Shown here piece by piece: positions 1 through 23,271 of a stretch of 23,271 nt of DNA. Source of the stretch: a virus; IMG/VR virus record IMGVR_UViG_3300021964_000562, positions 1 through 23,271 of that record; one strand, 5' to 3'. A program made the translations under genes and the position numbers. Each line of letters begins with the position of its first letter. Position 1 is the first letter of the stretch. The notes beneath the pieces are model-generated. The model made no database searches. It had not been told where the DNA came from and worked only from the letters and a program-made list of their open reading frames with translations.

Positions 1-145
1 AAAAAAAACTTAAAAAAAAATAAAAAAACTTTGTCATTTTAGTGCAAGAATTGGCCGAAGACTTTTGAAGAGGCGGGCTGTGAAAATGTTACTTGTAAAT
101 CAATCGGGGGGATGTTGTTTAAATTTCTATCCCACTACTTTTCAG

Positions 146-159
146 ATTGTTTAAACAAT
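146..159. repeat. Palindrome copy 1 (ATTGTTTAAACAAT)
   Basis: Perfect 14-bp inverted repeat centred on GTTTAAAC. It is the first of six copies of the TTGTTTAAACAA motif in the window. A TTGACA hexamer lies 10 bases downstream. Two 9/12 matches flank it at 115-123 and 419-427, so this non-coding region has the densest cluster. A dyad of this kind is what a dimeric DNA-binding protein would recognise; no such protein is encoded here that I can name. Confidence 0.75.
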
Positions 160-212
160 GCAACAAGCTTGACATATATGGGCTATATTCTGAAACAAAA
201 TAACAATCAGAT

Positions 213-229
213 TTGGTAAAAATTACCAA
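213..229 (+). other. Hairpin ahead of a strong ribosome-binding site
   Basis: TTGGTAA (213-219) pairs with TTACCAA (223-229) across a 3-base loop. It is followed after about ten bases by a GGGGGAGG ribosome-binding site for the 16-codon ORF at 250. It may shape the leader of that ORF. There is no U-run, so it is not a terminator. Confidence 0.4.
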
Positions 230-249
230 TAAAAACAGGGGGAGGTTAA

Positions 250-300
250 ATGTTGGGTGTCACTTATTATTATGTGTACCCTCTAAAAATATACTGTTAA
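250..300 (+). CDS. 16-aa tyrosine-rich mini-ORF with strong ribosome-binding site
   Basis: ATG at 250 is preceded 4 bases upstream by GGAGG (241-245, within GGGGGAGG), one of the strongest Shine-Dalgarno sequences in the window. The peptide is only 16 residues, MLGVTYYYVYPLKIYC, with five tyrosines, three of them consecutive TAT codons. It could be a leader peptide, a tiny expressed peptide, or chance. No family is recognisable. A weak inverted repeat (AGTAAA/TTTACT) follows the stop codon. Coding is uncertain; the ribosome-binding site is directly visible. Confidence 0.35.
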   Translation: MLGVTYYYVYPLKIYC

Positions 301-598
301 CTTCTAGTAAAAATACCTCTGTTTCTTTACTGTAGTAATGTTTCTTAAATAAGATGTTTAGTGGTTCTTACCCTGTGCTACGCCCTCCCAAACCGAATTA
401 AATCCATATCGCAGCATTTAAACAAATGTAGAATAATAGCCTTTTACGCTAGTTACCATGGTCAGGCAAATCCACTTACATGAGTTCTTATCGAGTAGAT
501 TGTTCTTAATGCCTGCAATCTACTGTGTTTGTAATTTAACAATACCACAATAAAAATTTAGTACAATTATTTAGGGTATGTTTTTTGGTAAAGCCTCC
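301..598. other. Non-coding stretch with inverted repeat
   Basis: No ORF with a credible ribosome-binding site is seen on either strand, and no tRNA-like T-arm. It contains a partial palindrome site (ATTTAAACAAAT, 416-427), a 9-bp inverted repeat (494-524) and a CCTCCTT string at 594-600. The last resembles a minus-strand Shine-Dalgarno but has no start codon in range. Confidence 0.5.
494..524. repeat. 9-bp inverted repeat (hairpin)
   Basis: AGTAGATTG (494-502) and CAATCTACT (516-524) are perfect inverted copies separated by 13 bases. A stable stem-loop in RNA from either strand is likely. There is no adjacent U-run strong enough to call a terminator. It could be part of a structured RNA or a protein-binding site. 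Confidence 0.5.
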
Positions 599-685
599 TT
601 ACTGAAAAGCTACCCCATTAAATCTAAAGTATGTTATGATTATTACAGATAGGTAACAAAGAAAACCCTCTAAGGTTTTATTCAT
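599..685 (-). CDS. Possible 28-aa single-pass membrane peptide
   Basis: On the minus strand an ATG (685-683) lies five bases after AAAGGAGG (698-691), a near-perfect Shine-Dalgarno that extends as TAGAAAGGAGG. It opens a 28-codon ORF, MNKTLEGFLCYLSVIIIT then a short polar end, with one hydrophobic segment at about residues 8-19. The possible promoter elements upstream on that strand (TTGCCC, 16 bases, TATACA) are weak. If real it is the only minus-strand gene in the window and would be divergent from the late genes. The competing reading is a plus-strand small RNA carrying CCUCCUUUCU, the same bases read the other way. No homologue is recognised. Confidence 0.4.
   Translation of the reverse strand: MNKTLEGFLCYLSVIIITYFRFNGVAFQ
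632..640 (+). promoter_or_regulatory. Extended -10 promoter element (TGTTATGAT)
   Basis: TGN followed by TATGAT matches an extended -10 box. No good -35 is seen 17 bases upstream. A start near 647 and the terminator at 721-751 would give a transcript of about 105 nt with no plus-strand ORF. Two other elements in the window (1240-1248, 17057-17065) share the TGWTATNAT form. Confidence 0.4.
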
Positions 686-720
686 TTGTTCCTCCTTTCT
701 ATTGTGTATATTAGAGCATA

Positions 721-751
721 GGCCTCGGGCAACCGAGGTCTTGTTCTTTTT
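721..751 (+). terminator. Rho-independent terminator with GCAA tetraloop
   Basis: GGCCTCGG (721-728) pairs with CCGAGGTC (733-740) around a GCAA (GNRA) tetraloop. This gives an 8-bp stem with one G-U pair, followed by a T-rich run to about 751. It is directed to the plus strand and ends whatever is transcribed from the 250-720 region. It also insulates the zinc-ribbon gene that follows. Confidence 0.8.
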
Positions 752-767
752 ATGATAGTATGCAGTT

Positions 768-872
768 ATGACAGATATTCATGTACAAGATTGTGACAAC
801 TGCTTAAACCCTTTTTGGGAAGATGCCTTAGAAGAAGGCCTATGTGAAGCATGTCAGGAATACGATTTATAA
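768..872 (+). CDS. 34-aa zinc-ribbon mini-protein
   Basis: ATG at 768 gives a 34-residue acidic protein with two CxxC knuckles, CDNC (residues 9-12) and CEAC (26-29). This is the layout of a single treble-clef or zinc-ribbon fold binding one zinc. It sits alone between two strong terminators (721-751 and 871-905), so it is an independent transcription unit. No Shine-Dalgarno is visible; a TATGAT box lies at 751-756, placing the start codon about 11 bases after it, so a very short leader or leaderless transcript is plausible. Small zinc ribbons in phages often bind nucleic acid or host proteins. The exact role is unknown. The ORF is short, but the cysteine pattern and tidy flanks argue that it is real. 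Confidence 0.65.
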   Translation: MTDIHVQDCDNCLNPFWEDALEEGLCEACQEYDL

Positions 873-905
873 AAAAAGACCCAGTGAGAGAACTGGGCCT
901 TTTTT
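871..905 (+). terminator. Terminator after the zinc-ribbon gene
   Basis: CCCAGT (880-885) pairs with ACTGGG (892-897) around a GAGAGA loop. It is preceded by seven As and followed by CCTTTTTT, so the A-run can pair with the T-run and lengthen the stem. It begins at the stop codon of the 34-aa gene. The symmetry would allow termination on both strands. Confidence 0.85.
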
Positions 906-1216
906 ATTTAGATAGTCAATCTATTTAAGGAGTTTGTAATGAATGGAAAACATTAACAAACTAATTTAATATTACCAACCTTCAGTTATAAGTATCAAAA
1001 AAAAAATTTTTTTACCCACCATAAAAACAGCAAGTAATTATATTAGTTATACCAGGAAAAGTTCCTGGTTGGTTGTATGGGGATATAACCAGTATGTAAA
1101 ATAAATATCTACATACGAATAGAAAAGAAAGAATGCTTTTCATATAGGACATTGTTCAGTATGGATTTGTGGTTTTTCATTTTCTTTCATAACAGTTTGG
1201 ACACTGTATATAGCAG
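906..1216. other. Non-coding stretch with an A/T tract and clustered hairpins
   Basis: No gene is seen. An A10T7 tract lies at 997-1013 and would be intrinsically curved. At 1046-1116 several stems cluster: ACCAGGAA/TTCCTGGT (1051-1058/1062-1069, 3-base loop), GTTATA/TATAAC enclosing it (1046-1051/1084-1089) and GTATGTA/TACATAC (1092-1098/1110-1116). With the terminator at 1217-1243 this could be a structured untranslated RNA. No clear promoter was found. Confidence 0.4.
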
Positions 1217-1243
1217 AACTCCACTTCGGTGGAGTTTTGTGTT
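1217..1243 (+). terminator. Terminator with UUCG tetraloop
   Basis: AACTCCAC (1217-1224) pairs with GTGGAGTT (1229-1236) around a TTCG loop closed by C-G. This is the very stable cUUCGg tetraloop, and a TTTTGTGTT run follows. It separates the upstream regulatory region from the late-gene block that starts at 1255. Confidence 0.85.
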
Positions 1244-1248
1244 ATTAT
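1240..1248 (+). promoter_or_regulatory. Extended -10 element (TGTTATTAT) before the late block
   Basis: TG, one base, TATTAT directly abuts the UUCG terminator. A transcription start about seven bases downstream would coincide with the ATG at 1255, giving a leaderless message for the first small gene. No Shine-Dalgarno precedes that ATG, which fits. No convincing -35 is present because the terminator stem occupies that position. Confidence 0.4.
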
Positions 1249-1254
1249 GATGAC

Positions 1255-1383
1255 ATGCCTTTAGCAAGTGGTAAATCAGATGACATAGTTGCAGCGAACA
1301 TTAGGAAGTTGCGGTCAGAAGGTTATCATTATAAACAAGCAGTTGCAATAGCAATGCGTAAGGCAGGAAGGAAAAAAATATAA
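1255..1383 (+). CDS. 42-aa basic phage mini-protein (GKS...KQAVAIA type)
   Basis: The protein starts MPLASGKSDDIVAANI and ends in a basic KAGRKKI tail. The GKS segment near the N-terminus followed by YKQAVAIAMRKAG (residues 26-38) matches, from memory, a widespread family of tiny phage proteins found just upstream of terminase genes; their function is not established. ATG at 1255 has no Shine-Dalgarno, and a possible extended -10 lies immediately upstream. The stop codon overlaps the next ATG by one base (TAATG), so the two are translationally coupled. It is first in the chain of small genes leading to terminase. Confidence 0.75.
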   Translation: MPLASGKSDDIVAANIRKLRSEGYHYKQAVAIAMRKAGRKKI

Positions 1384-1460
1384 TGCCAAAAGGAATTGGA
1401 TATCCAAAAGGTATGCCTAAGAAAAAAAAGAAAAAAGGTTCTAAGAAAAAAGGATACTAA
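1383..1460 (+). CDS. 25-aa lysine-rich mini-protein
   Basis: ATG at 1383 overlaps the preceding stop (TAATG), and its own stop overlaps the next ATG at 1460 in the same way. The peptide begins MPKGIGYPKGMPKK and continues almost wholly as lysine broken by GS and GGY; 13 of 25 residues are lysine. Such extreme basicity suggests nucleic-acid contact, which is inference. Because it is so short, the case for coding rests mainly on the two perfectly placed one-base overlaps and its position in the chain. Confidence 0.6.
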   Translation: MPKGIGYPKGMPKKKKKKGSKKKGY

Positions 1461-1717: not shown

Positions 1718-1720
1718 ATA

Positions 1721-2127: not shown

Positions 2128-2134
2128 GGTTTGT

Positions 2135-2236
2135 ATGAAAGTAGCATGCCCTAAGTGTGGTATACCGCTAATATACGATACTGACAGGTCTAAAATGACT
2201 TGTTTAAACAAGCAGTGTGAGGGTTATAGAAAATGA
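2135..2236 (+). CDS. 33-aa zinc-knuckle protein overlapping the terminase start
   Basis: ATG at 2135 follows AAGG (2126-2129) with 5-base spacing. The 33-residue product contains CPKC (residues 5-8) and a C-terminal C(4)C pair (C23, C28), MTCLNKQCEGYRK, consistent with one zinc-ribbon. Its TGA overlaps the terminase ATG as ATGA, which is classic translational coupling. The next protein also opens with a four-cysteine zinc finger, so two zinc-binding modules lie back to back. A copy of the 14-bp palindrome (2199-2212) is embedded in codons 22-26. The ORF is very short, but cysteine spacing, ribosome-binding site and overlap all support it. Confidence 0.7.
   Translation: MKVACPKCGIPLIYDTDRSKMTCLNKQCEGYRK
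2199..2212. repeat. Palindrome copy 2 (CTTGTTTAAACAAG)
   Basis: Perfect 14-bp inverted repeat inside the 33-aa zinc-knuckle gene, 21 bases before the terminase start codon. It is identical over all 14 bases to the copy at 14367-14380. Confidence 0.75.
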
Positions 2237-4149
2237 GTAAAGTAAAAGTATGTTTTGCACAATCATGTCATAATGTTTTAAAACCACCTGCAAGAAAATT
2301 TTGTTCACCAAAATGTTCAAAAGCATATCACAATAAAAAATATTACGCACAACAACAAGGTGCAGTTTATGAACCTGAACACGATGGTAAACCAGTTGCA
2401 GAACCTAATGTACAAAAAAGAAGAGGCGAAGTATATAACAAACTTATAGAAAAGAACTTAGGCCCTTTAATACTAAAAGGAGATTTAAAAAAACAAGATG
2501 CTGCTGAGTTATTAGGTTGTACTAAAGCCGCTTTGTCTTATGCATACGCTGCCTGGGTAGAAGATATGGAGACAAAAGAAAAAGCAGAGAACTGGACTTT
2601 ACCTGCTAAAGCAGAAAAATCACTAGCCGATTTTAAAATATTTAGAGATAGATACTTTGAGACAGAACAAGGTAAGCCATACGAAACACCTGAGTTTCAC
2701 ATTAGATGGATTAAATCTATTTTGAAGGCCATAGAAGAAGGTGGACAGCAGATGATACTATCTCCACCTCGACATGGCAAGACAGACTTACTAATTCATT
2801 TTGCAGTGTGGCTCATAATCAAGAACCCTAATGTTAGAATATTATGGGTGGGTGGTAATGAGGAGATAGCTAAGAACGCAGTAGCTTCAGTAATCGACCA
2901 ACTAGAAAATAATGAAAAACTCATCGAAGAACTATGCCCACCTGGAAGAAGCTTTAAACCAACTAGCCGAGCAGGAAAAGCGTGGTCGCAGAGTGGGTTT
3001 ACTGTTGGTACCAGGACTGTTACTGGTATTAAGTCACCTACCATGGTTGGTATTGGTAGGGGCGGAAAAATATTATCCCGAGATTGTGACATCATTATCG
3101 GAGATGACTTGGAAGACCACTCATCAACTATGCAACCAGCTTCAAGAGAAAACACTAGAACATGGTGGACTACAACATTGTCAAGTCGTAAAGAGGAACA
3201 TACAGCCTTAGTAGTTATTGGTTCTAGGCAACATTACGATGATTTATATTCTCATCTACTAGACAACGAAAGTTGGAACACAATAGTAGAAGAAGCACAT
3301 GACACTGGCTGTACTTTACCTGAATGGAATGATGAGGCCCATGTTGATTGTATGTTGTGGCCAGGTAAAAGAACTTACAAGTGGTTAACAGGCCGAAAGT
3401 CTGCAGCAGAAACTACAGGTGGTAGAGCTATATACGAAATGGTTTATCTTAATGTAGCAATGCCTGATGGTATGGCTTTATTCGATAGCGTAGAGATAGA
3501 TAGTTGTCGAGACCAAAGTAGAGATATAGGCCAAGTTCCTCCAGGAACAAGACTAATTGCAGGACTTGACCCTGCTTCTACTGGATATCAAGCTGCATTT
3601 TTGTGGGCCTATGACCAGTCATCAAACAAATTGTATATGGTTGATATGGAAAACTCTTTAGGTGGTGGTATTCCACAGGCCTTAAAGATTATGAAAGATT
3701 GGTTTGTTAAATACAATCTTGCACATTGGGTTATTGAGGAAAATGGTTTCCAACGAGCTATAAGACAAGACCAATCAATTCGTGAATTTGCAGGTAAACA
3801 TGGTATATTTTTAGAAGGAACGCAGACTTATTCTAATAAGCACGACCCAATATTTGGTGTGACTGCTATGAGACCATTGTTTGCAGAAAAGCTAATTTCT
3901 TTGCCTTATAATGGATTTGAGGCCCAAGAAAAGGTAAACTTATATAAAAGTCAGTTGGTTTATTTTAGTTCTGCACAGAACAAAAGTAGAACTGTAGGCC
4001 AAAAGTCTGACTTAGTTATGGCAAGTTGGTTCCCTATGAAAACTATTCGTAGGCTACAGAAGGAAAGACTTGCTACAATGGGACTTGAATATGAACCAAG
4101 TTTTGGTGGGTATGAAGGTAGTAACATAGATATTGACAGTTGGAGATAA
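2233..4149 (+). CDS. terL: Terminase large subunit (ATPase/nuclease) with N-terminal zinc finger
   Basis: The 638-aa DNA-packaging motor docks on the portal, pumps DNA into the procapsid and cuts the concatemer. Residues 7-28 hold C7, C12, C24 and C28 (KFCSPKCSKAYHNKKYY), an FCS-like zinc finger not typical of TerL. Residues 81-110 look like a helix-turn-helix, as if a small-subunit-like DNA-binding region were fused on. The ATPase has a Walker A variant SPPRHGKTD (177-185), a Walker B CDIIIGDDLED (285-295) and a coupling segment GSRQHYDD (330-337). The nuclease domain has LIAGLDPAS (D446), VIEENGFQ (E502/E503) and a C-terminal KSDLVMA (D593), the three-acid RNase H-like set. No separate small terminase gene is visible. 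The start overlaps the preceding stop (ATGA) and the end overlaps the portal ATG (TAATG). Confidence 0.93.
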   Translation: MSKVKVCFAQSCHNVLKPPARKFCSPKCSKAYHNKKYYAQQQGAVYEPEHDGKPVAEPNVQKRRGEVYNKLIEKNLGPLILKGDLKKQDAAELLGCTKAALSYAYAAWVEDMETKEKAENWTLPAKAEKSLADFKIFRDRYFETEQGKPYETPEFHIRWIKSILKAIEEGGQQMILSPPRHGKTDLLIHFAVWLIIKNPNVRILWVGGNEEIAKNAVASVIDQLENNEKLIEELCPPGRSFKPTSRAGKAWSQSGFTVGTRTVTGIKSPTMVGIGRGGKILSRDCDIIIGDDLEDHSSTMQPASRENTRTWWTTTLSSRKEEHTALVVIGSRQHYDDLYSHLLDNESWNTIVEEAHDTGCTLPEWNDEAHVDCMLWPGKRTYKWLTGRKSAAETTGGRAIYEMVYLNVAMPDGMALFDSVEIDSCRDQSRDIGQVPPGTRLIAGLDPASTGYQAAFLWAYDQSSNKLYMVDMENSLGGGIPQALKIMKDWFVKYNLAHWVIEENGFQRAIRQDQSIREFAGKHGIFLEGTQTYSNKHDPIFGVTAMRPLFAEKLISLPYNGFEAQEKVNLYKSQLVYFSSAQNKSRTVGQKSDLVMASWFPMKTIRRLQKERLATMGLEYEPSFGGYEGSNIDIDSWR

Positions 4150-5900
4150 TGAAAACAGCAGATGAAGTTTACAGCAGGGTATACGAACTAAGAAGTTTAC
4201 ATGCTGATGTCGTAGCGGAAAAAGATAAAATCAGAGCAATTATGAATGGTGGTGCTGATGGTATAAAAGCATTACTTGGTAAACAAATGAGAGATATGGA
4301 TTACCAACAAATACCTGCACCTAACTTACTTCACTCCGCAATGGAGAGATTTGCACAAAAACTAGGTAGAGCTCCTGATTTAAAAGTAGATATCTTTAAC
4401 GATAAAGACAGTGAAAGAGCTGCAAAGCGTGCAGAAAAACTAGAAAGAATAGTACACGCTTATGATGAACTGCAAAAAGTAGATTTACAATTACCACAAG
4501 TAGGTAGATGGTTACCAGGTTATGGTTTTGCTGTATGGGTTTTAAAAGAAAAGAAGGATGCTAATGGTGTTCCTTATCCATACGCAGAAGTAAAAGACCC
4601 TTACTTATGTTATCCAGGTTATTTTGGAGAAGGACAACAACCAAAAGAGTTAGCAGTAGTACAAAGAGTTCCGCACACAACACTAGCTAATCTATATCCA
4701 AAATATAAAAATGTAATTATGGATGAAGTCGATAGTGAATATAACACTATGGCCTATATGTCTAGTTATGATAAGACCTGGGGTAATCAAAGCGGTACAG
4801 GAAAAGTCGTAGCTGAATACTATGATGAAGAAGGAACTTATATCTTCTTACCTGAAAACAGAGTTATCTTAGACTTTATTCCTAATCCTTTAAAATCAGG
4901 ACCAAGATTTGTCGTAGCAAAAAGATTTGCTTTCGACCAAATGCAAGGCCAGTTCCATCATGTGATTGGACTAATGGCGAATATGGCAAAGATAAATGTT
5001 CTATCTGTCATTGCAATGGAAGATGCTGTGTTTACAGAAACCAACATCATCGGTGAGATAGAAAGTGGACAATACAAGAAAGGTAGATTATCGGTAAACT
5101 ACTTAACTCCTGGCAGTCAAGTAATAAAACCAACTAACAATCTTCCCTATCAGTTGTTCCAACAGATAGATAGACTAGAAAGACATCTTCGTTTAGGTTC
5201 GGCATATCCAGTATCTGATGATGGACAAAGCCCTAATGCATTTGTTACAGGCCGAGGACTAGAAGAACTTGGTCAATCTGCTTCATTGCATGTAAGAGAA
5301 TATCAAACAATTCTTAAAGATGCCCTAGAGCAAATAGATACTAAGAGACTTGAATGGGATGAAGTTATGTATGGTAACATGCGTAAGCCTATTGCAGGAT
5401 ATCGTAAAGGTACAGCTTTTAAAGAAACTTATGTTCCTAGTTCTGATATTGCAGAAATGTATAAGACTAGAAGAATTTATGGTGTTATGGCAGGATTTGA
5501 TGAACCACAAAAAATTATTACAGGTTTACAGCTAAAACAACAAGGTATTATCGATACACAAACTTTACAAGAGAATATGGATGGATTAGATAACATATCT
5601 CAAATACAACAAAGAATAAATTCTGAAAGAGCAGAGAATGTTTTGTTTGAAAGTCTTATGGCCCAAGCTGCACAAGGTAATCCTAAAGCAACTATGGCTG
5701 CTATTGAGATTAAGAAAAATCCTCAAAACATGAATAAAATTTTAGAAAAGTTCTATACTCCTGAAGGTGAGGACATGACACCTGAAGAGCAGGCCATGGC
5801 AGCTCCGCAACAAGCAGGGCCGCAAGGACCTCCTCCACAGTTAGCACAAGTTCTTGCACAAGCAGCAGCAGCTCAACAAGGAGGTGGACAAGGTGCCTAG
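4149..5900 (+). CDS. Portal protein
   Basis: The 583-aa head-vertex connector forms the dodecameric ring through which DNA enters and leaves. It follows terminase directly, as portals usually do. Segments such as IPAPNLLHSAMERFAQKLGR (N-terminal third), GRWLPGYGFAVWVLKEKKD and the long helical HVREYQTILKDALEQIDTKR fit portals of uncultivated marine phages. The C-terminus (about the last 35 residues) is a low-complexity Gln/Ala/Gly/Pro tail, common in portals. I chose ATG 4149 (TAATG overlap with terminase, GGAGA at 4143-4147) rather than the TTG nine bases earlier. The tail codons double as the ribosome-binding site (AAGGAGG, 5878-5884) and GTG start of the next gene. Confidence 0.85.
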   Translation: MKTADEVYSRVYELRSLHADVVAEKDKIRAIMNGGADGIKALLGKQMRDMDYQQIPAPNLLHSAMERFAQKLGRAPDLKVDIFNDKDSERAAKRAEKLERIVHAYDELQKVDLQLPQVGRWLPGYGFAVWVLKEKKDANGVPYPYAEVKDPYLCYPGYFGEGQQPKELAVVQRVPHTTLANLYPKYKNVIMDEVDSEYNTMAYMSSYDKTWGNQSGTGKVVAEYYDEEGTYIFLPENRVILDFIPNPLKSGPRFVVAKRFAFDQMQGQFHHVIGLMANMAKINVLSVIAMEDAVFTETNIIGEIESGQYKKGRLSVNYLTPGSQVIKPTNNLPYQLFQQIDRLERHLRLGSAYPVSDDGQSPNAFVTGRGLEELGQSASLHVREYQTILKDALEQIDTKRLEWDEVMYGNMRKPIAGYRKGTAFKETYVPSSDIAEMYKTRRIYGVMAGFDEPQKIITGLQLKQQGIIDTQTLQENMDGLDNISQIQQRINSERAENVLFESLMAQAAQGNPKATMAAIEIKKNPQNMNKILEKFYTPEGEDMTPEEQAMAAPQQAGPQGPPPQLAQVLAQAAAAQQGGGQGA

Positions 5901-6180: not shown

Positions 6181-6625
6181 GAAACCTGCTTCAAAAGTAG
6201 CTGCAGAAAAAGCAACAGATTTAACAACAGACCCAGGATATGCAGATTTGTATATTCCTAGAAAAAAAGGCGACCCAACAGGACAATCAGGTGAAGTAAA
6301 TACTATGGCAACAGGTTTAACTGCAGATGTATCAGGTGCAGAAGCAGCCGAAGTAACAAGAGAAGTACAAGTACAACCAGGAAGACCTATGAAATTAGGA
6401 GCTGCTACTAAATTTCAAAATGTTCCTGTTACAAATAATTTAGCATCAGCAGGTGCGGGAGTAGCACCAAAAGACCCTACCAATATGGAAGCATACTGGA
6501 TGGGCCTAATGTCTATGTTTGATGACCCAATAATTGCAGAATACTTACAACAAGATGATGCAGTTCCTCAAATGGTAGATAAAAGAAAACAAATAAAGTT
6601 TGGCGAGGATACTCGTGAGGCTTAA
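6173..6625 (+). CDS. Unknown structural-region protein, 150 aa
   Basis: The start at ATG 6173 is preceded by AAGAGG (6158-6163) with 9-base spacing; an in-frame ATG at 6164 is too close to that site. The N-terminal two thirds is polar and low in hydrophobics (many A, T, G, K, probably disordered). The C-terminal third has a compact aromatic stretch, MEAYWMGLMSMFDDPIIAEY, followed by an acidic end. This disordered arm plus short helix is typical of adaptor or scaffold-like phage proteins, but no family is recognised. It overlaps the previous gene by 8 bases and the giant gene by 11. Confidence 0.75.
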   Translation: MVRKPASKVAAEKATDLTTDPGYADLYIPRKKGDPTGQSGEVNTMATGLTADVSGAEAAEVTREVQVQPGRPMKLGAATKFQNVPVTNNLASAGAGVAPKDPTNMEAYWMGLMSMFDDPIIAEYLQQDDAVPQMVDKRKQIKFGEDTREA

Positions 6626-9600
6626 TGGGTTATCTTTTTCTGCTTCTTTTATAGCCGATGCCTTAGCAAAAGAGACACTTAATAAAGTTAACTCATACAA
6701 CGCAGGGGTAAAAGCAGGACAACAAAACCCTGACTTAGCACAGAGGTTTTCATCATTAGGACAAGCGTATCCAAATGTGCCATTTCAAATGAATGCATAT
6801 CAGGCTATGGCAGGTACTAATGCTGAAGATTTAGTTGCATTTAATACAGCAAGAAGAACACAAGAAATACTTGCAAAACAAAATGATTACAACTTAGACC
6901 CAATTACAAAAGTAAATCCTTTTAAAAGAAGTATCCAACTTGGAATGCTTGGACTAGATGCAGCGTTTCAACCTGTATCAAGAGGTTTTAAGTCTGCAGT
7001 AGTTGCAGCACAACAGAACGATAAGTCAGTATTAGGAACTGTGGCTTTAGCTACACTAGCAGGATTACCTGAAATCTTTATTGGTAGAAAAGGTGAAGGT
7101 GGAGGAGATGTTACTAGAGGCGTATTAAACACAATTATGGGTGATGGTGTTGGCGATAGTTACCAAGCAGCAAGAGATAAGTATGGACCAACACAATTAA
7201 CTATGGCCTTAAACGAAAGAAGAAAAGGAAACCCACTTAACTTAGGAGCGGGTTTTATGCCAAGGTCAGTAGATTTAAGAACTACACAAGAGTATCTTAA
7301 TGCAATTAGAGCAGGCGAAAGCAAAACAGTTGCTTATCAAAAGGCCAAAGAAAGATATGGAAGTAGCATTACAAGATTACACGATGCACGAGCTGACCAG
7401 TTTAAATATGAAACTAAACGAGGTCAAAAGATAAACATATCTCCTGGAAGATTAGTAGCTTCACAAATGCTAGAACCAGGAACTACAGGTTACAGTGTTG
7501 TATCAGGTGCTATCGATGGTGTATTTAGAATTGCAGCAGACCCAGTAAACCTTGCATTGATGTATGGTGCAGGTGTCAAAACAGCTATGAGAAGTATGAC
7601 AGGTGCTTATGCTAAAGGAACAAAAGCTATTGACCCAACTACAACATTACTAAAAGGTTTTTTACCAGGAAAAACAGGTGCTAGAAACAGAGCATTATAT
7701 TATGGAAGAACAGTTGATGATGTAAGAAATACTAAATGGGGACAAGATTTTGGTAAAGCATTAGCTGAAGTAAGTGGTGATGAAGGTCTTGCATTTTTAA
7801 GAGATATTCCTGATTTTAGAGATTTACCTGTATCAGTATTAAAAGTTATTAATGAAGTAGATGACCCTATTCATGTGTGGGACATATTAGACATTGTTGC
7901 TAAAGGTGGTAATTTATCTGACAGTCAGTTTGATAATATCTTTAATGTTATAAAAGAGTATGTTCCTGCAAAAGTACAAAAAGAACTAGATAATGTTAGA
8001 GAACTTGCAAGGAACAATGTAAACTTTGGACTTGATGTTATACCTGCTAGACCTACAGTTTATGGTGAAGTATTTAATCACATAAATAAATTAATTACAG
8101 GTCAAAGCACTGATGTTGCACCTTTAAGAAAACTAACAGCATTTTTAACTAAGGCTGACCCTGCACAAGGTTTACTTGGAATAGGAGCACAAGCTAAGTT
8201 AAGTCTTCCAAAACACATGCAAAGAGCTTTTAGTTTAGTTCCTGAAACTACAGCTATGATTACTCAGTTAGATGAAAGTGTTAAGAATATAGACAACAAT
8301 ATGAGAAATGCATTTGTAGATGCTAAAACAAGAGGCCGATACATTGATGAAGCATTAAATGCTACATCTCAACAAGAACTAGATGCACTTGTTAATGAAG
8401 TAAATGTCATTATTTATCGAGCTGTACAAAAAGAAAATCCAGGAATAGATGTAGATGTTGATATGTTGGTAAAACAACAAGAAAACTTTAATGCACAAAT
8501 GGAAGAGCTTAGAAGTTTTTTCAAAGGTAGTGCAGGTTCTTTAGCTTTTAATGGGACAAAAATAAAGAAAAGATATACCCAGTTAATTAAAGATTTAGAT
8601 GAACACTTCAAACAAACAGGGTTAGAAGTTAAACCTGATGATATTGAAAGATATGTATTTGAAGCTGTACCTACAATGCATTTATTATCACAAGCATCTA
8701 ATACTTTTTCAGTTATAGCAAATCCTAAAGATGTTATTCGTGCTACTAAAAGACATCAACTATTAGTTGGCAAAAAAGATACTAAGTTAAATGCATTCAT
8801 GAAGAATGCAGAAATAAGTTGGGATAACAGAAAATACTTTGACATTCTTAAAATACCTAGATATGTAAAAGAAGGTGAAACATTAAGAGCACCTGATGCT
8901 TTTGATAGTGCTTTTAACATGATACAAAATAATGTACTTAAACCTGCTTGGATGATTAGAGGTGCTTTAGCATTAAGAATTGCACCTGAAGAAGCATTAA
9001 GAGCTGCATTCGGTGGAAAGATAAATCCATTTACATCTGCTTTCAAAAGATTATCTCTAACCTCAAATAAATATTATGACTTCTTTGGAGAAGGTAGAGC
9101 AGACCAAGTAGCACAAGTTTATGACAATACAGGCAATATTGTACTTACAACACAAATGACACCTGACAGTATTGAGCTACTAAAAAACTTTATTGATGTA
9201 GAAGATGTCAAAAAGTTTCAAGCTATAAACTACGACAAAGCACAGAAATTAATTAAAAACAGCATGTTGGAAACTAATTACAATGGTCAAGTATCAGAGT
9301 ATATGATTGATGCTGCTGTTAATGGATTTGATTTAAGGCAAATAAAGTTTGCAGAATTAACAGATAAAGATTTTGTTGCTAAAACTAAAAGCATAAAAGC
9401 AACAGCTAAAGGTTCTATTGTGGGATACGATGGCAATACTTACAACTCTATGGGAGAAGCTTTTATAAAAGGTGGTGGATTTACTACCGATTTAGATGAA
9501 AGAAGATTTTTTGACTTAAAAACAAGAGGGCCTGCAGAAGGTGATGCATTCGTATCTCCATACAAAGAAAAAGAATACAGTATTGGAAAAATAGGTGACA

Positions 9601-12600
9601 TTGAAAGAGAAGCAAAGGCTTTAAAAATAGATGAAGCAGAATATATAAATCAACAATTAGACAATATATTTTTTGATGAAGACACCATAGGTCTATTGTC
9701 TAAAGACAAACATGTCATGGGAACATACATAGATAGCGATGGAAACTTTATGGTAGATGTTGCAGTTGGTTTATCAGGTGAAAACTCAGTATCTAATGCA
9801 GTCTTTATGGGAATGAACGCATTCCAGGAAAGTGTTTATATTGCAAACAGAGAACTTGCAGAGAAAGCAGGATTTAAAAATGCACTAGGTGATAGTGATT
9901 TAATTTATTTATACAGAAAACAAAAAGGTAAAGCAGCTGCAGATATAAACATTGATAGTGTTCTTAACAAACCTGCATTAGAAGCATTGTATCCACATAA
10001 CTTCGATGCATTAAGAATTAAAGTAAGTGATGTCAAAGGTGCTATGAGAGGTATGCCTGGAGGAAGTTTCTTCAGTGCCGATGCCACATACAATGCTTCA
10101 CTAGGAGAAAATGCTGTAACAGAAGCTTTAAAGACAGGTAGAAAAGACTTAATAGAAAATATGTTTATTGAGGTTCCTAAATATTTACAAAACCAAAAAA
10201 TAAATCCTAGATACTGGGAGGCTTTATGGACAGAGATAGAATTATTAGCATCTGACCCTATTGCAATTAAAGTAGCTGATGTTGGTATAGATGATACTTT
10301 GAAGTATTTAAGAAATGAAGGTAAAGAAACATTACAAGATTTAGTACAAAGAAGTCATAATGCCGATGACAGATTATATCTACAAAGCGATGCATCGTTA
10401 AAAGAATATTTAGAGAGTGTTCAATATAGAATAGCAAGATTAATAGGTGCAGAGCATTCATTATTAGACCCAACAACAGGTGCTATTATGTCTGCTGAAC
10501 AAGCAACAAGAGTAGCTTTTGACAATGGATACAAGGTACATCCAAAATTCGTATCTAATTTATCTAACAGAACTAATTCTAAAATATATGAAATGATTAG
10601 GACTGGTGGAGTAGTTGGAAGAAAAGACTGGGTAAGATATAAACAACATAATCAATTAAGAAAAGGGCCTAAAAAGGGACAAGCTAATGCTAAGTTTTTT
10701 GATGAACTAATAGAATTATTGACACCTGAAGTAGATGCAGCAGGACTAGGCCCACAGTCGCTACCTGCAAGGTTTGATGCAAAGCAAAGAGTTTCAGATA
10801 GTGGAACTATGGTTGTAGGAGAAAAGATAGTTCCTGCAGGTACAGCAGATGACATTCAATATTATGACAAAACATTCGGTGGGTATATGCGTAGCATTGA
10901 CTTTATGTATGATGTATTGATATCAAAACCATCTAACAAACTAAATAGAGACCCATTATTTAGATATGCTTTTTATGAGAATGCAGTTGAACTTATGCCA
11001 TTTATGGATGAGGCAACTAAGTCACAGTTCTTAAAAGGTGCAGAGACTTGGGTAGATGGTAATGAAATATGGGATGATTTAATTCAAGCTGCAAAACAAC
11101 CATCAGTAGAAAATACTGTAACAAGTTTAGAACAAGCAGAGATGATATTGAAAGCTAAAGCATTGCGTGAAGTAAAAGAATTGTTTTATTCAACAGACAA
11201 AAGACATGTAGCCTCAGAGTTGTTCAACAAGTACATACCATTCCCTGAGATATGGGCAGAGGTATTCCAAACATGGGGCAAGTTAATAACAGAAAATCCA
11301 CAGAAGTTTAACAAAGCAAGAATAACTGTAGACAATGGTGAAGAAGCTAAACCATGGGATAGTGAGAATGGATTTTTAGAAAGAGACCCATCAACAGGAA
11401 AACTTATGTTTAACTATGTAGATGTTTTGAATGTATTAACATTTGGTGTTGGTGGTAGAGCATTAGATGCACTTGCACAAAAAGCAGCATTCGGAGAAAA
11501 TTTAGAAGAAGAAGGTGTTAGGTTAGCATTACCAGGATATGCAGGTGGACTTAACTTAGTTGCACAAAATGGTTTTGCACCTGGATTTGGACCACTTGTT
11601 ACTGTTCCTATGACATTCTTTGTAGATAAAGTACCAACACCTAAATACATTCAAGACTTTTTCTTAGGTAACTTTGGAAGAGACCTGGAACAATGGCCTG
11701 CTTGGTTAAAGAAGTTTATGACTGCTAATACTAAAGATGCAGATAGACAAGCACAGTTTGCTAATGCAGTTATGGATGCATATACAGGATTTGTACTAGC
11801 AGGTTTAGTTGACCAAACAGATGCACAATCTACTACAAAATATACAGAACTAGCAGTAGAAAAAGCTAGAAACTTATTTATATTTAGAGGAGCTACACAG
11901 TTTACATTACCAACTGCAATACAACCAAGAATAGAAGTGCAAGATAAAAATGGACAATGGTGGATGACACAGGCCTTAAAAAACAAATATGATGAAATAC
12001 TAATTAGAAATGATTACGATTACTTTACAACAGACCAAGAGTTTGAAGCTAAGTTTGGAATTAACCCTGTTCCATTAAAACAAGCAAGAGGTGCTACTGT
12101 TGGTAAAAAACCTGTTAAAGAACATTCATTCTTTTGGTGGCAAGAAGATAATAGAGAAGATTTATTAAAACCAGGTAACTTACCAAATACAGGTATTTAC
12201 ATACAACCTGATAAATTGGAAGATGAAATGTATTACCCTGCTTGGTATGAGGTAGTAAGTACTCAATATACACCTGAACAATACGCTCAATTTATGAGAC
12301 AGTCACAAGCTATATCAGAACTAGAAAAAGAAAAAGCAAGAATTAGAGAAGAAGAACCTGAGCGTATGTGGGACACAAAATATTCAGAAGCTAAAGATAA
12401 AATACAAACAGAATACGATATAGATAATATCTATAACTTTGAAGGTAAATTACAAAAAGCAGAAGTTGTTACTAACTTTGGTGAATTAGATAGATGGGTA
12501 GATTTTGAACTAACTAAAAATAGCCCTGAGTTTGAATATGTAGAAAAATATACTGCACTTAGAAATGAATTAATTAACGCATTAAATAACAATGGAGTTT

Positions 12601-12821
12601 TTAAATATAAAGATACAACAGTAAGATTTGTAAGGAGTAATAGAACAAGTAAACATTTGCAGGGAACAAGTGCTAATGCACAGAAAGCACAAGATATAAT
12701 GAGGATTATATGGCAAGATATTGTTGCTGAAAGTACAGGTACAAACTTCCCACAACTTGCGAATGAAGTGTTATTTTATGAGATAAGCCCTTATAATAAT
12801 AGGAATAGGATAGATAAATAA
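6615..12821 (+). CDS. Giant virion-associated protein, 2,068 aa (probable internal/ejection protein)
   Basis: This gene fills over a quarter of the window. It starts at GTG 6615, five bases after GAGGA (6605-6609); TTG 6600 has no ribosome-binding site and ATG 6625 is in another frame. The protein is mostly helical-looking and charged, with isolated hydrophobic or glycine-rich patches: about residues 138-158 (VLGTVALATLAGLPEIFIG), 295-330 (AADPVNLALMYGAGVK) and 1605-1675 (FGVGGRALDALA ... GYAGGLNLVAQNGFAPGFGP ... VTVPMTFFVDK). I saw no lysozyme, peptidase or polymerase signature. The size, the position in the structural operon and the glycine-rich membrane-compatible patches fit large inner-core proteins of podovirus-like phages that are ejected with the DNA. 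A tape-measure role is less likely because there are no long heptad repeats and no tail-assembly chaperone pair upstream. Confidence 0.8.
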   Translation: MRLNGLSFSASFIADALAKETLNKVNSYNAGVKAGQQNPDLAQRFSSLGQAYPNVPFQMNAYQAMAGTNAEDLVAFNTARRTQEILAKQNDYNLDPITKVNPFKRSIQLGMLGLDAAFQPVSRGFKSAVVAAQQNDKSVLGTVALATLAGLPEIFIGRKGEGGGDVTRGVLNTIMGDGVGDSYQAARDKYGPTQLTMALNERRKGNPLNLGAGFMPRSVDLRTTQEYLNAIRAGESKTVAYQKAKERYGSSITRLHDARADQFKYETKRGQKINISPGRLVASQMLEPGTTGYSVVSGAIDGVFRIAADPVNLALMYGAGVKTAMRSMTGAYAKGTKAIDPTTTLLKGFLPGKTGARNRALYYGRTVDDVRNTKWGQDFGKALAEVSGDEGLAFLRDIPDFRDLPVSVLKVINEVDDPIHVWDILDIVAKGGNLSDSQFDNIFNVIKEYVPAKVQKELDNVRELARNNVNFGLDVIPARPTVYGEVFNHINKLITGQSTDVAPLRKLTAFLTKADPAQGLLGIGAQAKLSLPKHMQRAFSLVPETTAMITQLDESVKNIDNNMRNAFVDAKTRGRYIDEALNATSQQELDALVNEVNVIIYRAVQKENPGIDVDVDMLVKQQENFNAQMEELRSFFKGSAGSLAFNGTKIKKRYTQLIKDLDEHFKQTGLEVKPDDIERYVFEAVPTMHLLSQASNTFSVIANPKDVIRATKRHQLLVGKKDTKLNAFMKNAEISWDNRKYFDILKIPRYVKEGETLRAPDAFDSAFNMIQNNVLKPAWMIRGALALRIAPEEALRAAFGGKINPFTSAFKRLSLTSNKYYDFFGEGRADQVAQVYDNTGNIVLTTQMTPDSIELLKNFIDVEDVKKFQAINYDKAQKLIKNSMLETNYNGQVSEYMIDAAVNGFDLRQIKFAELTDKDFVAKTKSIKATAKGSIVGYDGNTYNSMGEAFIKGGGFTTDLDERRFFDLKTRGPAEGDAFVSPYKEKEYSIGKIGDIEREAKALKIDEAEYINQQLDNIFFDEDTIGLLSKDKHVMGTYIDSDGNFMVDVAVGLSGENSVSNAVFMGMNAFQESVYIANRELAEKAGFKNALGDSDLIYLYRKQKGKAAADINIDSVLNKPALEALYPHNFDALRIKVSDVKGAMRGMPGGSFFSADATYNASLGENAVTEALKTGRKDLIENMFIEVPKYLQNQKINPRYWEALWTEIELLASDPIAIKVADVGIDDTLKYLRNEGKETLQDLVQRSHNADDRLYLQSDASLKEYLESVQYRIARLIGAEHSLLDPTTGAIMSAEQATRVAFDNGYKVHPKFVSNLSNRTNSKIYEMIRTGGVVGRKDWVRYKQHNQLRKGPKKGQANAKFFDELIELLTPEVDAAGLGPQSLPARFDAKQRVSDSGTMVVGEKIVPAGTADDIQYYDKTFGGYMRSIDFMYDVLISKPSNKLNRDPLFRYAFYENAVELMPFMDEATKSQFLKGAETWVDGNEIWDDLIQAAKQPSVENTVTSLEQAEMILKAKALREVKELFYSTDKRHVASELFNKYIPFPEIWAEVFQTWGKLITENPQKFNKARITVDNGEEAKPWDSENGFLERDPSTGKLMFNYVDVLNVLTFGVGGRALDALAQKAAFGENLEEEGVRLALPGYAGGLNLVAQNGFAPGFGPLVTVPMTFFVDKVPTPKYIQDFFLGNFGRDLEQWPAWLKKFMTANTKDADRQAQFANAVMDAYTGFVLAGLVDQTDAQSTTKYTELAVEKARNLFIFRGATQFTLPTAIQPRIEVQDKNGQWWMTQALKNKYDEILIRNDYDYFTTDQEFEAKFGINPVPLKQARGATVGKKPVKEHSFFWWQEDNREDLLKPGNLPNTGIYIQPDKLEDEMYYPAWYEVVSTQYTPEQYAQFMRQSQAISELEKEKARIREEEPERMWDTKYSEAKDKIQTEYDIDNIYNFEGKLQKAEVVTNFGELDRWVDFELTKNSPEFEYVEKYTALRNELINALNNNGVFKYKDTTVRFVRSNRTSKHLQGTSANAQKAQDIMRIIWQDIVAESTGTNFPQLANEVLFYEISPYNNRNRIDK

Positions 12822-17743: not shown

Positions 17744-18754
17744 ATGGCAGCTATAGGCTCACCAGACCCAATCTCAGTATCTGAGATTAACAATTTTACT
17801 GGCGAACTATTCAAAGTTGGTGCTAGAAGAACACCTTTACTATCAATGGTTGGTGGTTTAACAGGTGGTAAACTTCTTAACTCTCCAGTTTTCCAAACCC
17901 AAAAAGTAGATACACCTACAGTTAACTCTTACACAGCAGTTGCTGAAGGTGGAAACCCTGCTTACTTTGGTAGAAGCAGAAGTTCTGCAATAGACTGTGT
18001 GCAAATTTGGAACCAAGGTATTAAACTTACCTACTCCGCATTAGCATCTACAGGATATTTGAACTCACAAGCTATGGAAACTGGAACAGCAGCTTTTGAA
18101 GGTTCTAACCCAGTCACAGATGAAATGGCATTTCAATTAGAAGAATTGCTCAGCAAAATCGCAAGAGAAGTTGAGTATGAGTTCTTTAATGCTACTTTCA
18201 ATGATGGAACAGATGGTAACCCAAGAGAAATGCGTGGTATCGCAGAATGGGTAGCCACAGGAAATGGTTCATCAGCTTTCGCCCACGATACAAATGGCGA
18301 TGGAAGTGGTACAGCACAAGGTCTTGACTTTGATGCAGTAGCAGAAACCCTTAAATTAATGTATGATGCAGGAGCCCCAATGGGTAACCCTGTTCTGTTC
18401 GCAAGACCAGGTTCAATCTTAGACTTGAACCAAAACCTTGTGAAGAGTGGTTCTAATCAAATGGCAGTATTGCCTAGAGATAGAAACATTGCAGGTATCA
18501 ACATTGATAGTATCATCACTCCATTTGGAAATATTGGATTAGCAGTTAACGAATATGTTCCTGCTGACCAAGCATTCATTTTGGACCTTTCATACCTAGA
18601 TGTTTGTTTCTTAAACATCCCAGGAAAAGGTGGTGTCTTCGTAGAAGATACAGATAATGATGATGCAGCCGCAGTATCAAAGCGTGTTTACATGGAAATT
18701 GGTCTTGATAAAGGACCTGCTGAGTATCACGCAGTTATCAATGGCGTAAGCTAA
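17744..18754 (+). CDS. Major capsid protein, SU10-type HK97 fold
   Basis: The 336-aa subunit forms the icosahedral or prolate shell. Family features recognised from memory of SU10-type (DUF5309) capsid proteins: an N-terminal region with PLLSMVGG (31-38) leading to the E-loop-like segment 45-80; a long spine helix MAFQLEELLSKIAREVEYEF (128-147); NPREMRGIAEWV (159-170); PRDRNIAGINIDSIITPFGN (244-263); and the closing NIPGKGGVFVEDTD and YMEIGLDKGPAEYHAVING. Its GC content and codon choice look slightly higher than those of its neighbours, as expected for a highly expressed gene. ATG 17744 follows TTTAGGAGAATAA. A terminator follows the stop codon. No protease or delta-domain is seen at the N-terminus, so maturation may not need cleavage. 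Confidence 0.9.
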   Translation: MAAIGSPDPISVSEINNFTGELFKVGARRTPLLSMVGGLTGGKLLNSPVFQTQKVDTPTVNSYTAVAEGGNPAYFGRSRSSAIDCVQIWNQGIKLTYSALASTGYLNSQAMETGTAAFEGSNPVTDEMAFQLEELLSKIAREVEYEFFNATFNDGTDGNPREMRGIAEWVATGNGSSAFAHDTNGDGSGTAQGLDFDAVAETLKLMYDAGAPMGNPVLFARPGSILDLNQNLVKSGSNQMAVLPRDRNIAGINIDSIITPFGNIGLAVNEYVPADQAFILDLSYLDVCFLNIPGKGGVFVEDTDNDDAAAVSKRVYMEIGLDKGPAEYHAVINGVS

Positions 18755-19200: not shown

Positions 19201-20142
19201 ATGAGTACAACTATAGGAAACCTAGTAGATAGGGTTTATAGAGAGTATCTTGAACCAATGGAAGACATTGTTAGTTACTCTTATTTAACTTCAGGCATAG
19301 ATGCTAACGCTACTGAGATAGTTTATGATGATAATTTATTATCAGTAGAAGAAGAAGATGCACTAGATGCAGGAACAATAATAGAAATTGGTCAAGAATT
19401 AATGTATGCAACAGCCCTTAATGCTGTTACAAATACTATTACAGTAACTAGAAGTGCTAGAGGAACTACCGCTACATCACACAGTGCAGGAGATTTAATA
19501 AAAATAAGCCCTCCATTTCCAAGAATTAATGTATTTAATGCAGTAAAAGACCAAATAGAAAATTTATATCCTACTCTTTACGCAGTAGAAGTTCAAACTA
19601 TAGCTAGTGCTGCAGGTTATGTGGCCCTAGAAGGTGCAGATGATAGTAGAATTGTTGCACCATTAGCTGCAGTTTCACAGTATCAATCACTTGCAAGTGG
19701 CAGTGAAACCACAGTTCAATTTAGAGGTGTTGCTATGGAACTTATAGATGTACCAACTTCAGTTACTGCTTCAGGAAAAGTTGTACAGTTTTCAGGAATA
19801 AACAATGGCGTTAATGTTCATGTAACTTTTAAAAAGAAATTTGGAGAAGTAGCTAACGAAGCATCTACTCTTGCAGACATAGGATTAGAAACAGAATACG
19901 AACCTATAATTATGGCAGGAGTTGCAGCACAAATGATATCAGGAAAAGATATTCCTACTTACACTGCTGATTACATTACAGAACAAATGGCTGTAAGCAA
20001 CTATCCAGTTAATTCATCTTCAAATATAAGAAATTCATTACTTCAATATCAACAAGTGTTAATTAACCAGGCTAGAAAAGATTTAAGAGCAAGATATCCT
20101 GAACCAGTTAGCGTAAACAGCGTGGTATATCCAAGTGCCTAG
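19201..20142 (+). CDS. Head-tail adaptor or tail-tube-like protein, 313 aa
   Basis: ATG 19201 follows AAGGAAG at spacing 4. The N-terminal 20 residues (IGNLVDRVYREYLEPMED) are helical. Residues 25-105 form a beta-rich domain with EIVYDDNL and TNTITVTRSARGTTATSHSA, a motif I know from phage structural proteins (SARGT...H); a similar element (VTRDVEGRHSPDISHSDGT) recurs in the 176-aa fibre protein. The C-terminal part has helices such as YEPIIMAGVAAQMISGKDIP (about 238-257) and KDLRARYPEP. The order capsid, small decoration protein, this gene, large tail protein resembles the adaptor or tubular-tail position in podoviruses. No exact family is assigned. The stop overlaps the next GTG (GTGCCTAG). 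Confidence 0.65.
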   Translation: MSTTIGNLVDRVYREYLEPMEDIVSYSYLTSGIDANATEIVYDDNLLSVEEEDALDAGTIIEIGQELMYATALNAVTNTITVTRSARGTTATSHSAGDLIKISPPFPRINVFNAVKDQIENLYPTLYAVEVQTIASAAGYVALEGADDSRIVAPLAAVSQYQSLASGSETTVQFRGVAMELIDVPTSVTASGKVVQFSGINNGVNVHVTFKKKFGEVANEASTLADIGLETEYEPIIMAGVAAQMISGKDIPTYTADYITEQMAVSNYPVNSSSNIRNSLLQYQQVLINQARKDLRARYPEPVSVNSVVYPSA

Positions 20143-22105: not shown

Positions 22106-22132
22106 TATAATATGGTATCATTGTTTAAACAA
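22106..22132 (+). promoter_or_regulatory. TATAAT box with palindrome copy 6 in the leader
   Basis: TATAAT at 22106-22111 starts one base after the propeller gene. TTGTTTAAACAA at 22121-22132 follows ten bases later. If the TATAAT is used, the start would be near 22118 and the palindrome would cover the first transcribed bases and part of the AAGGAG ribosome-binding site (22131-22136). That is an operator-like position. No good -35 is seen. Confidence 0.5.
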
Positions 22133-22140
22133 GGAGATAA

Positions 22141-22671
22141 ATGACAGCTCAACAAGTTAATTACAGCAACTTTTTTGAAACTACATTAGATGGTAATGTT
22201 GGTGCATCAGATACTAACATAACATTATCTGCAGCTCCTACATCTGATGGTACTTCTGCTATATCTGCACCTTTTTATTTGGTTATAGACCCTGACAGTG
22301 CAACAAACAAAGAAGTAATATTAGTTACTGCATCTTCAGGCGTTTCTATGACAACTGTAACTAGAGATGTAGAAGGCAGACATTCACCTGATATATCACA
22401 TTCAGATGGAACTACTGTTCGTATGGCAGTTGTTGGAGAAATGTTTGAAGATTTACATGACCAATTAACATCAGGAACTTTAACTTTAACAAATAAAACA
22501 TTAACAAGCCCTGTACTAAATACAAGTGTTAGTGGTACTGCAGTACTAGATGAAGATACGATGACATCTAATAGTGCAACACAACTAGCTACACAACAAT
22601 CAATAAAAGCCTATGTAGACACACAAGTTGCTACTAAAGCAGGTATTGGTTTAATAATAGCTTTAGGATAA
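22141..22671 (+). CDS. Short tail-fibre-type protein, 176 aa
   Basis: ATG 22141 follows AAGGAG (22131-22136) at spacing 4. The N-terminal 100 residues form a beta domain with TTVTRDVEGRHSPDISHSDG (71-90), like the domain in the 313-aa protein. Residues 113-127 (LTLTNKTLTSPVLNT) and 145-162 (SATQLATQQSIKAYVDTQ) are hallmark repeats of marine phage tail fibres: trimeric-fibre strands followed by a coiled-coil joint. In most phages these lead into a long receptor-binding region. Here the protein stops soon after, at 176 aa, so the receptor-binding part is either absent or supplied by a separate downstream gene. It probably acts as a fibre adaptor. Confidence 0.75.
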   Translation: MTAQQVNYSNFFETTLDGNVGASDTNITLSAAPTSDGTSAISAPFYLVIDPDSATNKEVILVTASSGVSMTTVTRDVEGRHSPDISHSDGTTVRMAVVGEMFEDLHDQLTSGTLTLTNKTLTSPVLNTSVSGTAVLDEDTMTSNSATQLATQQSIKAYVDTQVATKAGIGLIIALG

Positions 22672-22673
22672 TT

Positions 22674-22871
22674 ATGGGTATATTATTAATGCTTAAAGAA
22701 GGTGGAAGTTTAGGAATAGACACTATTGGTAATTTGCCAATAGATGAAGACATAGATTTATTACCCGATGCAGGTGGCGTATCTCTTGCATTTAGGGAAA
22801 TAATGGAAGCACTTTCTGTTACCAACACGACAAGTTCGACTGGTCGTGCTATAGTAATGGGAAGCATATAA
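22674..22871 (+). CDS. Unknown small tail-region protein, 65 aa
   Basis: ATG 22674 begins two bases after the fibre stop, with TTAGGA about nine bases upstream. The product is acidic (LPIDEDIDLLPD, residues 21-32) with a helix AFREIMEALS and a Ser/Thr-rich end. No motif is recognised. It may be a small fibre-associated or chaperone-like protein given its position. An alternative in-frame ATG lies at 22689. Confidence 0.6.
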   Translation: MGILLMLKEGGSLGIDTIGNLPIDEDIDLLPDAGGVSLAFREIMEALSVTNTTSSTGRAIVMGSI

Positions 22872-22893
22872 AAATATATGGAGAAAAGATAAA

Positions 22894-23223
22894 ATGGCAG
22901 AAACATTTAAATCAGTAACATTAGATGCAGCTCTAACAATGTCTGACTTAATACCAACAGTAGCAGCAGATACAGAAGTAATTGTTATCTCTTGTCGTGC
23001 CACCAATGTTGATGGTGCAGCAGATGCAACAGTAGATGTTGAAGTTACAGATGGTGCTAGTAAAAATGCTTATGTTGCTTATACAATGACAGTTCCTGCA
23101 GATAGCTCTTTAGAGTTAGCAGGTACTTCTAAGTTAGTTTTACAAACTGGCGATAAGTTACAAGGGTTAGCATCAGCTACTGGAGATATAGAGTTTTTCG
23201 TTTCTTACTTAGAGATTACATAA
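22894..23223 (+). CDS. Small beta-rich virion surface/tail protein, 109 aa
   Basis: ATG 22894 is preceded by TGGAGAAAAGATAAA, a usable ribosome-binding site. The all-beta composition (VTLDAALTMSDLIPTVAADT; VIVISCRATNVDGAADATVD; AYTMTVPADSSLELAGTSKL; IEFFVSYLEI) is a pattern I know from short phage proteins near tail fibres that resemble decoration or fibre-tip domains. The YTMTVPADSSLEL and GDKLQGLAS elements are typical. The exact role is unknown. It is followed at 13 bases by another gene start. Confidence 0.7.
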   Translation: MAETFKSVTLDAALTMSDLIPTVAADTEVIVISCRATNVDGAADATVDVEVTDGASKNAYVAYTMTVPADSSLELAGTSKLVLQTGDKLQGLASATGDIEFFVSYLEIT

Positions 23224-23235
23224 TAAGGAGTACCT

Positions 23236-23271
23236 ATGGCTAAATATGGTTTCACAGGTGCTAAACCTACA
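23236..23271 (+). CDS. Start of a further gene, cut by the window end
   Basis: ATG 23236 lies five bases after AAGGAG (23225-23230). Only 12 codons are present, MAKYGFTGAKPT. The strong ribosome-binding site and tight spacing to the preceding gene indicate a real gene continuing the tail operon. The product cannot be identified from 12 residues. Confidence 0.7.
   Translation, partial: MAKYGFTGAKPT

What the first reader, a model, noticed from the sequence alone, without database searches (positions are those of the whole stretch)
1..23271. Complete absence of GANTC
Checking every AATC, ATTC, ACTC and AGTC in the window, none is preceded by G, so GAATC/GATTC and GACTC/GAGTC are all missing. 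Chance predicts about 75. Ser after Asp or Glu is written AGT/AGC (e.g. GAAAGT, GATAGT, GACAGT) rather than TCN, whereas TCA/TCT is used freely after other residues. GANTC is the CcrM/HinfI site; CcrM methylation is characteristic of many Alphaproteobacteria. Losing both GATC and GANTC suggests two independent pressures, or one host with both specificities, and may be a host clue.
Basis: partly seen in the sequence, partly recalled or inferred. Interest (0 to 1): 0.8.

Follow-up and report, generated by a model that had tools for sequence, protein, structure and literature searches.

The report
Marine phage purged of restriction sites
A virus of an unidentified marine bacterium has removed every copy of GANTC, GATC and several other short words from its DNA, most likely because bacterial restriction enzymes cut at those words; related viruses each lack a different set, so the missing words read like a record of past bacterial defences.

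Summary
GANTC occurs 0 times in 23,271 bases; a codon-preserving null gives 46 (lowest of 300 shuffles 33). GATC is 0 against 66. The purge also covers ACGT, GACG/CGTC, ACGG/CCGT, CCGG, GCGC and nearly all CCAGA/CCAGC.

The window is a fragment of a tailed marine phage with no close cultured relative. Across 74 loci (the window and relatives), each clade lacks its own set of words, mostly all-or-none. GANTC is exactly 0 in 51 loci (2,650 expected in total) and present in sister clades, with at least four switches on the terminase tree. Orthologous sites of purged words are all lost, while most control words keep about 20-45%. Arbitrary IMG/VR contigs lose 0.7 words on average; this family loses 5.6.

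Best explanation: recognition-site elimination under restriction by hosts with several changing, mainly Type II, systems. The phenomenon is known; its breadth and turnover here are extreme.

The host is unresolved. Cultured SAR11 phages share much of the vocabulary, including joint GATC and GANTC loss. Distant protein matches and one metagenome bin point to marine actinobacteria. "Two independent pressures" is supported; an alphaproteobacterial host is possible, not shown.

The parts
1..23271 (.). whole window: no GANTC, GATC, ACGT, ACGG/CCGT, GACG/CGTC, CCGG, GCGC or CGCG on either strand; CCAGA and CCAGC once each
2233..4149 (+). terminase large subunit
   Evidence: phrog_38, E 1e-64
4140..5900 (+). 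portal protein
   Evidence: 24% identical to annotated portal proteins of Streptomyces phages, E 1e-22
6600..12821 (+). giant 2073-aa protein, function unknown
   Evidence: ORF; no match in the phage collection; related giant ORFs in the family
17744..18754 (+). major capsid protein
   Evidence: phrog_1328, E 2e-34; 27-32% to actinobacteriophage capsids
19201..20142 (+). protein of unknown function in the structural block
   Evidence: phrog_7578, E 6e-39
22141..22671 (+). tail-fibre-like protein
   Evidence: phrog_24210, E 1e-6

Best explanation
The missing words are recognition sites of restriction enzymes met in the phage's hosts. Incoming phage DNA that carries an unmethylated site is cut, so genomes without the site are selected until none is left. 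GANTC and GATC can always be removed by silent changes, so proteins need not change. Hosts carry several restriction-modification systems, mainly Type II, and the set differs between strains and over time. Each phage clade therefore shows its own combination of purged words, and a word returns when its pressure ends. Shown here: complete, clade-specific elimination and its turnover. Inferred: that host restriction enzymes are the cause. Not established: which host, and which enzyme acts at GANTC.
For: Codon-preserving null: GANTC 0/46, GATC 0/66, GACG 0/56, ACGT 0/36. Mostly all-or-none distribution across 74 loci, and at least 4 state changes for GANTC on the terminase tree. Orthologous sites of purged words are all lost (CCGG 0 of 40 kept against G001) while most control words keep 20-45%. 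Purged palindromes are known Type II sites (GATC, GANTC, GGCC, CCGG, GCGC, ACGT, TCGA, CATG, CGCG; enzyme specificities from general knowledge), while 8 other palindromic 4-mers are never purged. Baseline viral contigs lose 0.7 words, this family 5.6. One candidate host order encodes a GGCC system: a HaeIII-like methylase beside an NgoPII-type nuclease. Site elimination is documented for dsDNA phages (PMC6286503).
Against: No host is known, so no cognate enzyme for GANTC was identified. Some purged words (GACG, ACGG, CCAGA, CCAGC, CTCAG) are asymmetric and match no Type II enzyme that I can name for certain; avoidance of Type I, IIG and III sites is reported as very rare (PMC6286503). SAR11, a possible host, is reported to lack restriction systems (PMC9516812).
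Confidence: 0.85

Rival explanations
1. GANTC is lost because the host is an alphaproteobacterium (for example SAR11) in which CcrM-methylated GANTC is a regulatory or self mark, not because a nuclease cuts it.
For: About half of pelagiphages are depleted in GANTC although no restriction system was found in SAR11 (PMC9516812). HTVC011P and HTVC019P lack GANTC (0/76, 1/77) and GATC. Five-mers purged in 7 pelagiphages fall in this family's list 16 of 25 times (chance 1.1), against 6 of 23 in low-GC baseline contigs.
Against: CcrM does not explain the other purged words (GATC, ACGT, GACG and so on). Close relatives keep GANTC at about half or more of expectation. The host is not shown to be an alphaproteobacterium.
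Confidence: 0.1
2. The phages carry their own site-specific nucleases against host or rival DNA, and avoid their own sites.
For: Would explain complete absence. One distant relative (G032 contig C30) does carry a methyltransferase.
Against: No PF01555 methylase in 30 relatives, and no restriction enzyme or DNA methyltransferase family among the families listed for 72 accessory proteins (only the first 25 of 31 and of 40 families are shown, and ORFs under 60 aa were left out). GATC is purged almost everywhere without any nuclease seen.
Confidence: 0.04
3. The absence is a by-product of mutation bias, CpG loss or codon usage.
For: CpG is scarce in the window (ratio 0.29) and several purged words contain CG.
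Against: GATC, GANTC and CCAGM contain no CG. Other CG words such as ACGA (45/59), GCGT (25/13) and TCGT (27/20) are common. The codon-preserving null predicts dozens of copies, and sister clades keep GANTC.
Confidence: 0.01

Closest known systems
Recognition-site elimination by dsDNA phages (Rusinov et al. 2018, PMC6286503)
   Same: Complete loss of palindromic Type II sites from phage DNA, far below expectation.
   Different: Here several words are purged at once, some asymmetric, and sets switch between closely related clades; that paper paired phages with known hosts, here the host is unknown.
GANTC depletion in pelagiphages (PMC9516812)
   Same: Marine phages, GANTC lost in a clade-wise manner; HTVC011P and HTVC019P also lack GATC.
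   Different: That paper treats GANTC only. The window's phage is not closely related to cultured pelagiphages: capsid, portal and giant protein gave no pelagiphage match.
Flowerpowervirus and related Streptomyces phages (Beephvirinae)
   Same: Gene order terminase, portal, small genes, giant gene (an endolysin gene lies between terminase and portal there); portal and terminase similar at 23-26% identity.
   Different: No purged words of this kind in the stretch examined; the giant proteins do not match convincingly (best E 0.003).

Membership tests
Recognition-site elimination (anti-restriction strategy) | Observed/expected below 0.1 with expectation above 15 (criterion of PMC6286503) | tested here: met
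   GANTC 0/46, GATC 0/66, ACGT 0/36, GACG 0/56, ACGG 0/33; null model differs from that paper's
Recognition-site elimination (anti-restriction strategy) | Sites are those of orthodox Type II systems | tested here: inconclusive
   Palindromic words fit known Type II sites; GACG, ACGG and CCAGM are asymmetric
Recognition-site elimination (anti-restriction strategy) | Host encodes the cognate restriction enzyme | not testable with these tools
   Host unknown; a GGCC system and others occur in one candidate host order, no GANTC nuclease identified
Recognition-site elimination (anti-restriction strategy) | Phage is non-temperate and lacks other DNA protection | tested here: inconclusive
   No integrase among the families listed for relatives (lists truncated); one relative has a Mom-like gene; the window is a fragment
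Phage-host pair with an alphaproteobacterium (CcrM clue) | Phage family found in alphaproteobacterial genomes | tested here: inconclusive
   1 of 385 genomes, a metagenome bin (G033); composition test uninformative
Phage-host pair with Actinomarinales | Phage family found in genomes of that order | tested here: inconclusive
   1 of 42 genomes (G032, a metagenome bin with two such contigs); no WhiB gene in the window or 20 relatives
Phage-encoded nuclease with self-avoidance | Nuclease or methylase gene shared by phages lacking the word | tested here: not met
   None found, within the stated limits

The most novel reading that the evidence does not exclude
Unrelated phages of streamlined marine bacteria, including SAR11 phages whose hosts are reported to lack restriction systems, draw on one shared vocabulary of purged words, many of them asymmetric. 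If so, these hosts or their unsampled strains carry a large, fast-changing set of site-specific nucleases that has not been recognised, and phage barcodes record it.
Probability: 0.3. Interest if true: 0.78.

Novelty: new member of a known kind. Interest (0 to 1): 0.55.

Why it matters
If host restriction is the cause, the purged words of each phage clade form a barcode of the enzymes its hosts have used. That would let one read defence repertoires of uncultured marine bacteria, and perhaps host ranges, from phage sequence alone. It also sharpens a puzzle that can be tested: cultured SAR11 phages show the same multi-word purge although SAR11 is reported to lack restriction systems.

Tried and rejected
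Host by tetranucleotide composition: could not separate SAR11-like from Actinomarinales-like genomes, and the Prochlorococcus phage control gave high scores to everything. Host by WhiB, an actinobacterial marker: absent from the window and 20 relatives. Host by tRNA genes: none. Host by genome-collection hits: four metagenome bins from unrelated groups, no isolate. Phage-borne methylation as protection: no PF01555 methylase in 30 relatives. A Mom-like gene in relative G015 did not go with relaxed elimination. CpG depletion as sole cause: rejected. No structure prediction was made, because it would not bear on the question.

Full report
CHECK. GANTC and GATC are both absent from all 23,271 bases. 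I built a null that keeps every protein and each gene's codon usage and shuffles intergenic DNA by dinucleotides. It gives GANTC 46 on average (range 33-64 in 300 shuffles), GATC 66 (51-82), GACG/CGTC 56, ACGT 36, ACGG/CCGT 33, GCGC 9 and CCGG 9, all with 0 observed; CCAGA plus CCAGC are 2 against 66. Ser after Asp or Glu is AGY 48 times and TCN never, against 260 TCN to 120 AGY elsewhere.

WHAT IT IS. The window is an IMG/VR virus record with a terminase, a portal, a giant 2073-aa protein and a major capsid protein. No cultured phage is close: capsid 27-32%, portal and terminase 23-26%, mostly to actinobacteriophages, and the giant protein has no match. The viral collection holds many relatives. 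I compared 74 loci or genomes, the window among them; three of these (L161-L163) are more distant relatives from metagenome bins.

PATTERN IN RELATIVES. Each clade lacks its own set of words. GATC is gone in 72 of 74 loci, ACGT in 54 of 71 testable, GGCC in 40 of 74, TCGA in 24 of 65, CATG in 6 of 74. GANTC is exactly 0 in 51 loci (2,650 expected over them) and present in 23, in most of them at half or more of expectation. The palindromes AATT, AGCT, ATAT, CTAG, GTAC, TATA, TGCA and TTAA are never purged. For GATC, GANTC, GGCC, CATG and ACGT the distribution is close to all-or-none; for CTCAG it is graded. On the terminase tree GANTC needs at least 4 changes of state, GACG 4, CCGG 3, TCGA 3, GGCC 2 and CTCAG 6. 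Near-complete relatives of about 40 kb show the same sets in both halves, so the purge is genome-wide there.

DIRECT COMPARISON. Aligning the window with G001 (74% DNA identity), none of 40 CCGG, 15 GACG or 9 GCGC sites of G001 survives in the window, while most control words survive in 20-45% of places (CATG 21 of 47, TGCA 62 of 150). Against the GANTC-bearing relative G013, 0 of 15 GANTC sites survive. Most of the lost CCGG and GACG sites differ by one base (29 of 40 and 11 of 15). These are marks of selection on the word itself.

BASELINE. Among 41 arbitrary IMG/VR contigs of at least 9 kb, the mean number of purged 4-mers plus GANTC is 0.71; 26 have none, and none lacks both GATC and GANTC. 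The window's family averages 5.6, range 1-13. The family contigs are on average longer, which helps detection, but the first 11 kb of the window alone already shows five purged words.

MECHANISM. The best account is restriction-site elimination, a documented strategy of dsDNA phages: complete or nearly complete loss is seen in about a tenth of viral genomes and concerns largely orthodox Type II sites (PMC6286503). It is cheap because GATC and GANTC can be removed by silent changes in any reading phase; this follows from the genetic code. That host restriction is the selecting force is inferred, since the host is unknown. Mutation bias is excluded for GATC and GANTC. Phage-borne nucleases or methylases were not seen, within limits: ORFs under 60 aa and cluster representatives under 95 aa were left out, only the most frequent 25 families were listed, and PF00145 and PF02086 were not searched directly in the phage records. 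CcrM alone would not explain the other words.

HOST. Two candidates remain. (a) Marine actinobacteria: the actinophage-like proteins (also an MRE11-like exonuclease of relatives), and a metagenome bin (G032) with two contigs of distant family members. The bin's order has 42 held genomes of 0.6-1.1 Mb; pieces of them have mostly 26-36% GC, which fits the published Actinomarinales (PMC7771536); this identification rests on size and GC only. That order encodes a HaeIII-like methylase beside an NgoPII-type nuclease (GGCC), an MvaI/BcnI-type nuclease, Dam/DpnM-like methylases, and a conserved methylase of about 280 aa in most genomes. (b) SAR11: cultured pelagiphages lack the same kinds of words (HTVC011P: GATC, GANTC, GGCC, TCGA, CCAGC), and five-mers purged in seven pelagiphages fall in this family's list 16 of 25 times (chance 1.1), against 6 of 23 (chance 0.7) in low-GC baseline contigs. 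GANTC depletion in pelagiphages was reported before (PMC9516812). The seven pelagiphages are partly related, so they are not seven independent observations. Composition could not decide.

VERDICT. A real and strong signal of a known kind, with unusual breadth and turnover.

Noticed in passing
L137:6821-7384 (relative G015): A gene whose start resembles Mom, the DNA modification protein; a Mom family match (PF25680, phrog_1384) was found once among 72 accessory proteins, and I assign it to this gene by its sequence. G015 still lacks GATC, GANTC, GGCC, ACGT and TCGA.
   Followed up: partly
L226:9920-10678 (G032 contig C30): A distant family member carries a CcrM-like N6/N4 methyltransferase. The same gene recurs 43,860 bases further on, so the contig looks like a circular phage genome read past its start. 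It lacks GATC and GGCC but keeps GANTC (109/121 over 40 kb).
   Followed up: partly
L182:1474-2310 and equivalents: A solitary methyltransferase of about 280 aa, between an ABC transporter gene and a peptidase-like gene in L182, recurs in most genomes of the Actinomarinales-like order (a PF01555 match over the cut-off in 36 of 42). Its specificity is unknown.
   Followed up: no
L359, L360, L361, L380, L382 (pelagiphages HTVC010P, 011P, 019P, 022P, 109P): Cultured SAR11 phages have many purged words beyond the published GANTC, including GATC, GGCC, GCGC, CCAGC, GCAGC, CATCC and CTCAG.
   Followed up: partly
Relatives G013, G014, G016: ACGG/CCGT, CCGC, CCCG, TCCG and (where testable) CCGG are all purged, as if the 3-base word CCG/CGG itself were the target.
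   Followed up: no
window 1-1459: The left 1.4 kb begins with an A-rich stretch and holds no reading frame of 60 aa or more; its role was not studied.
   Followed up: no
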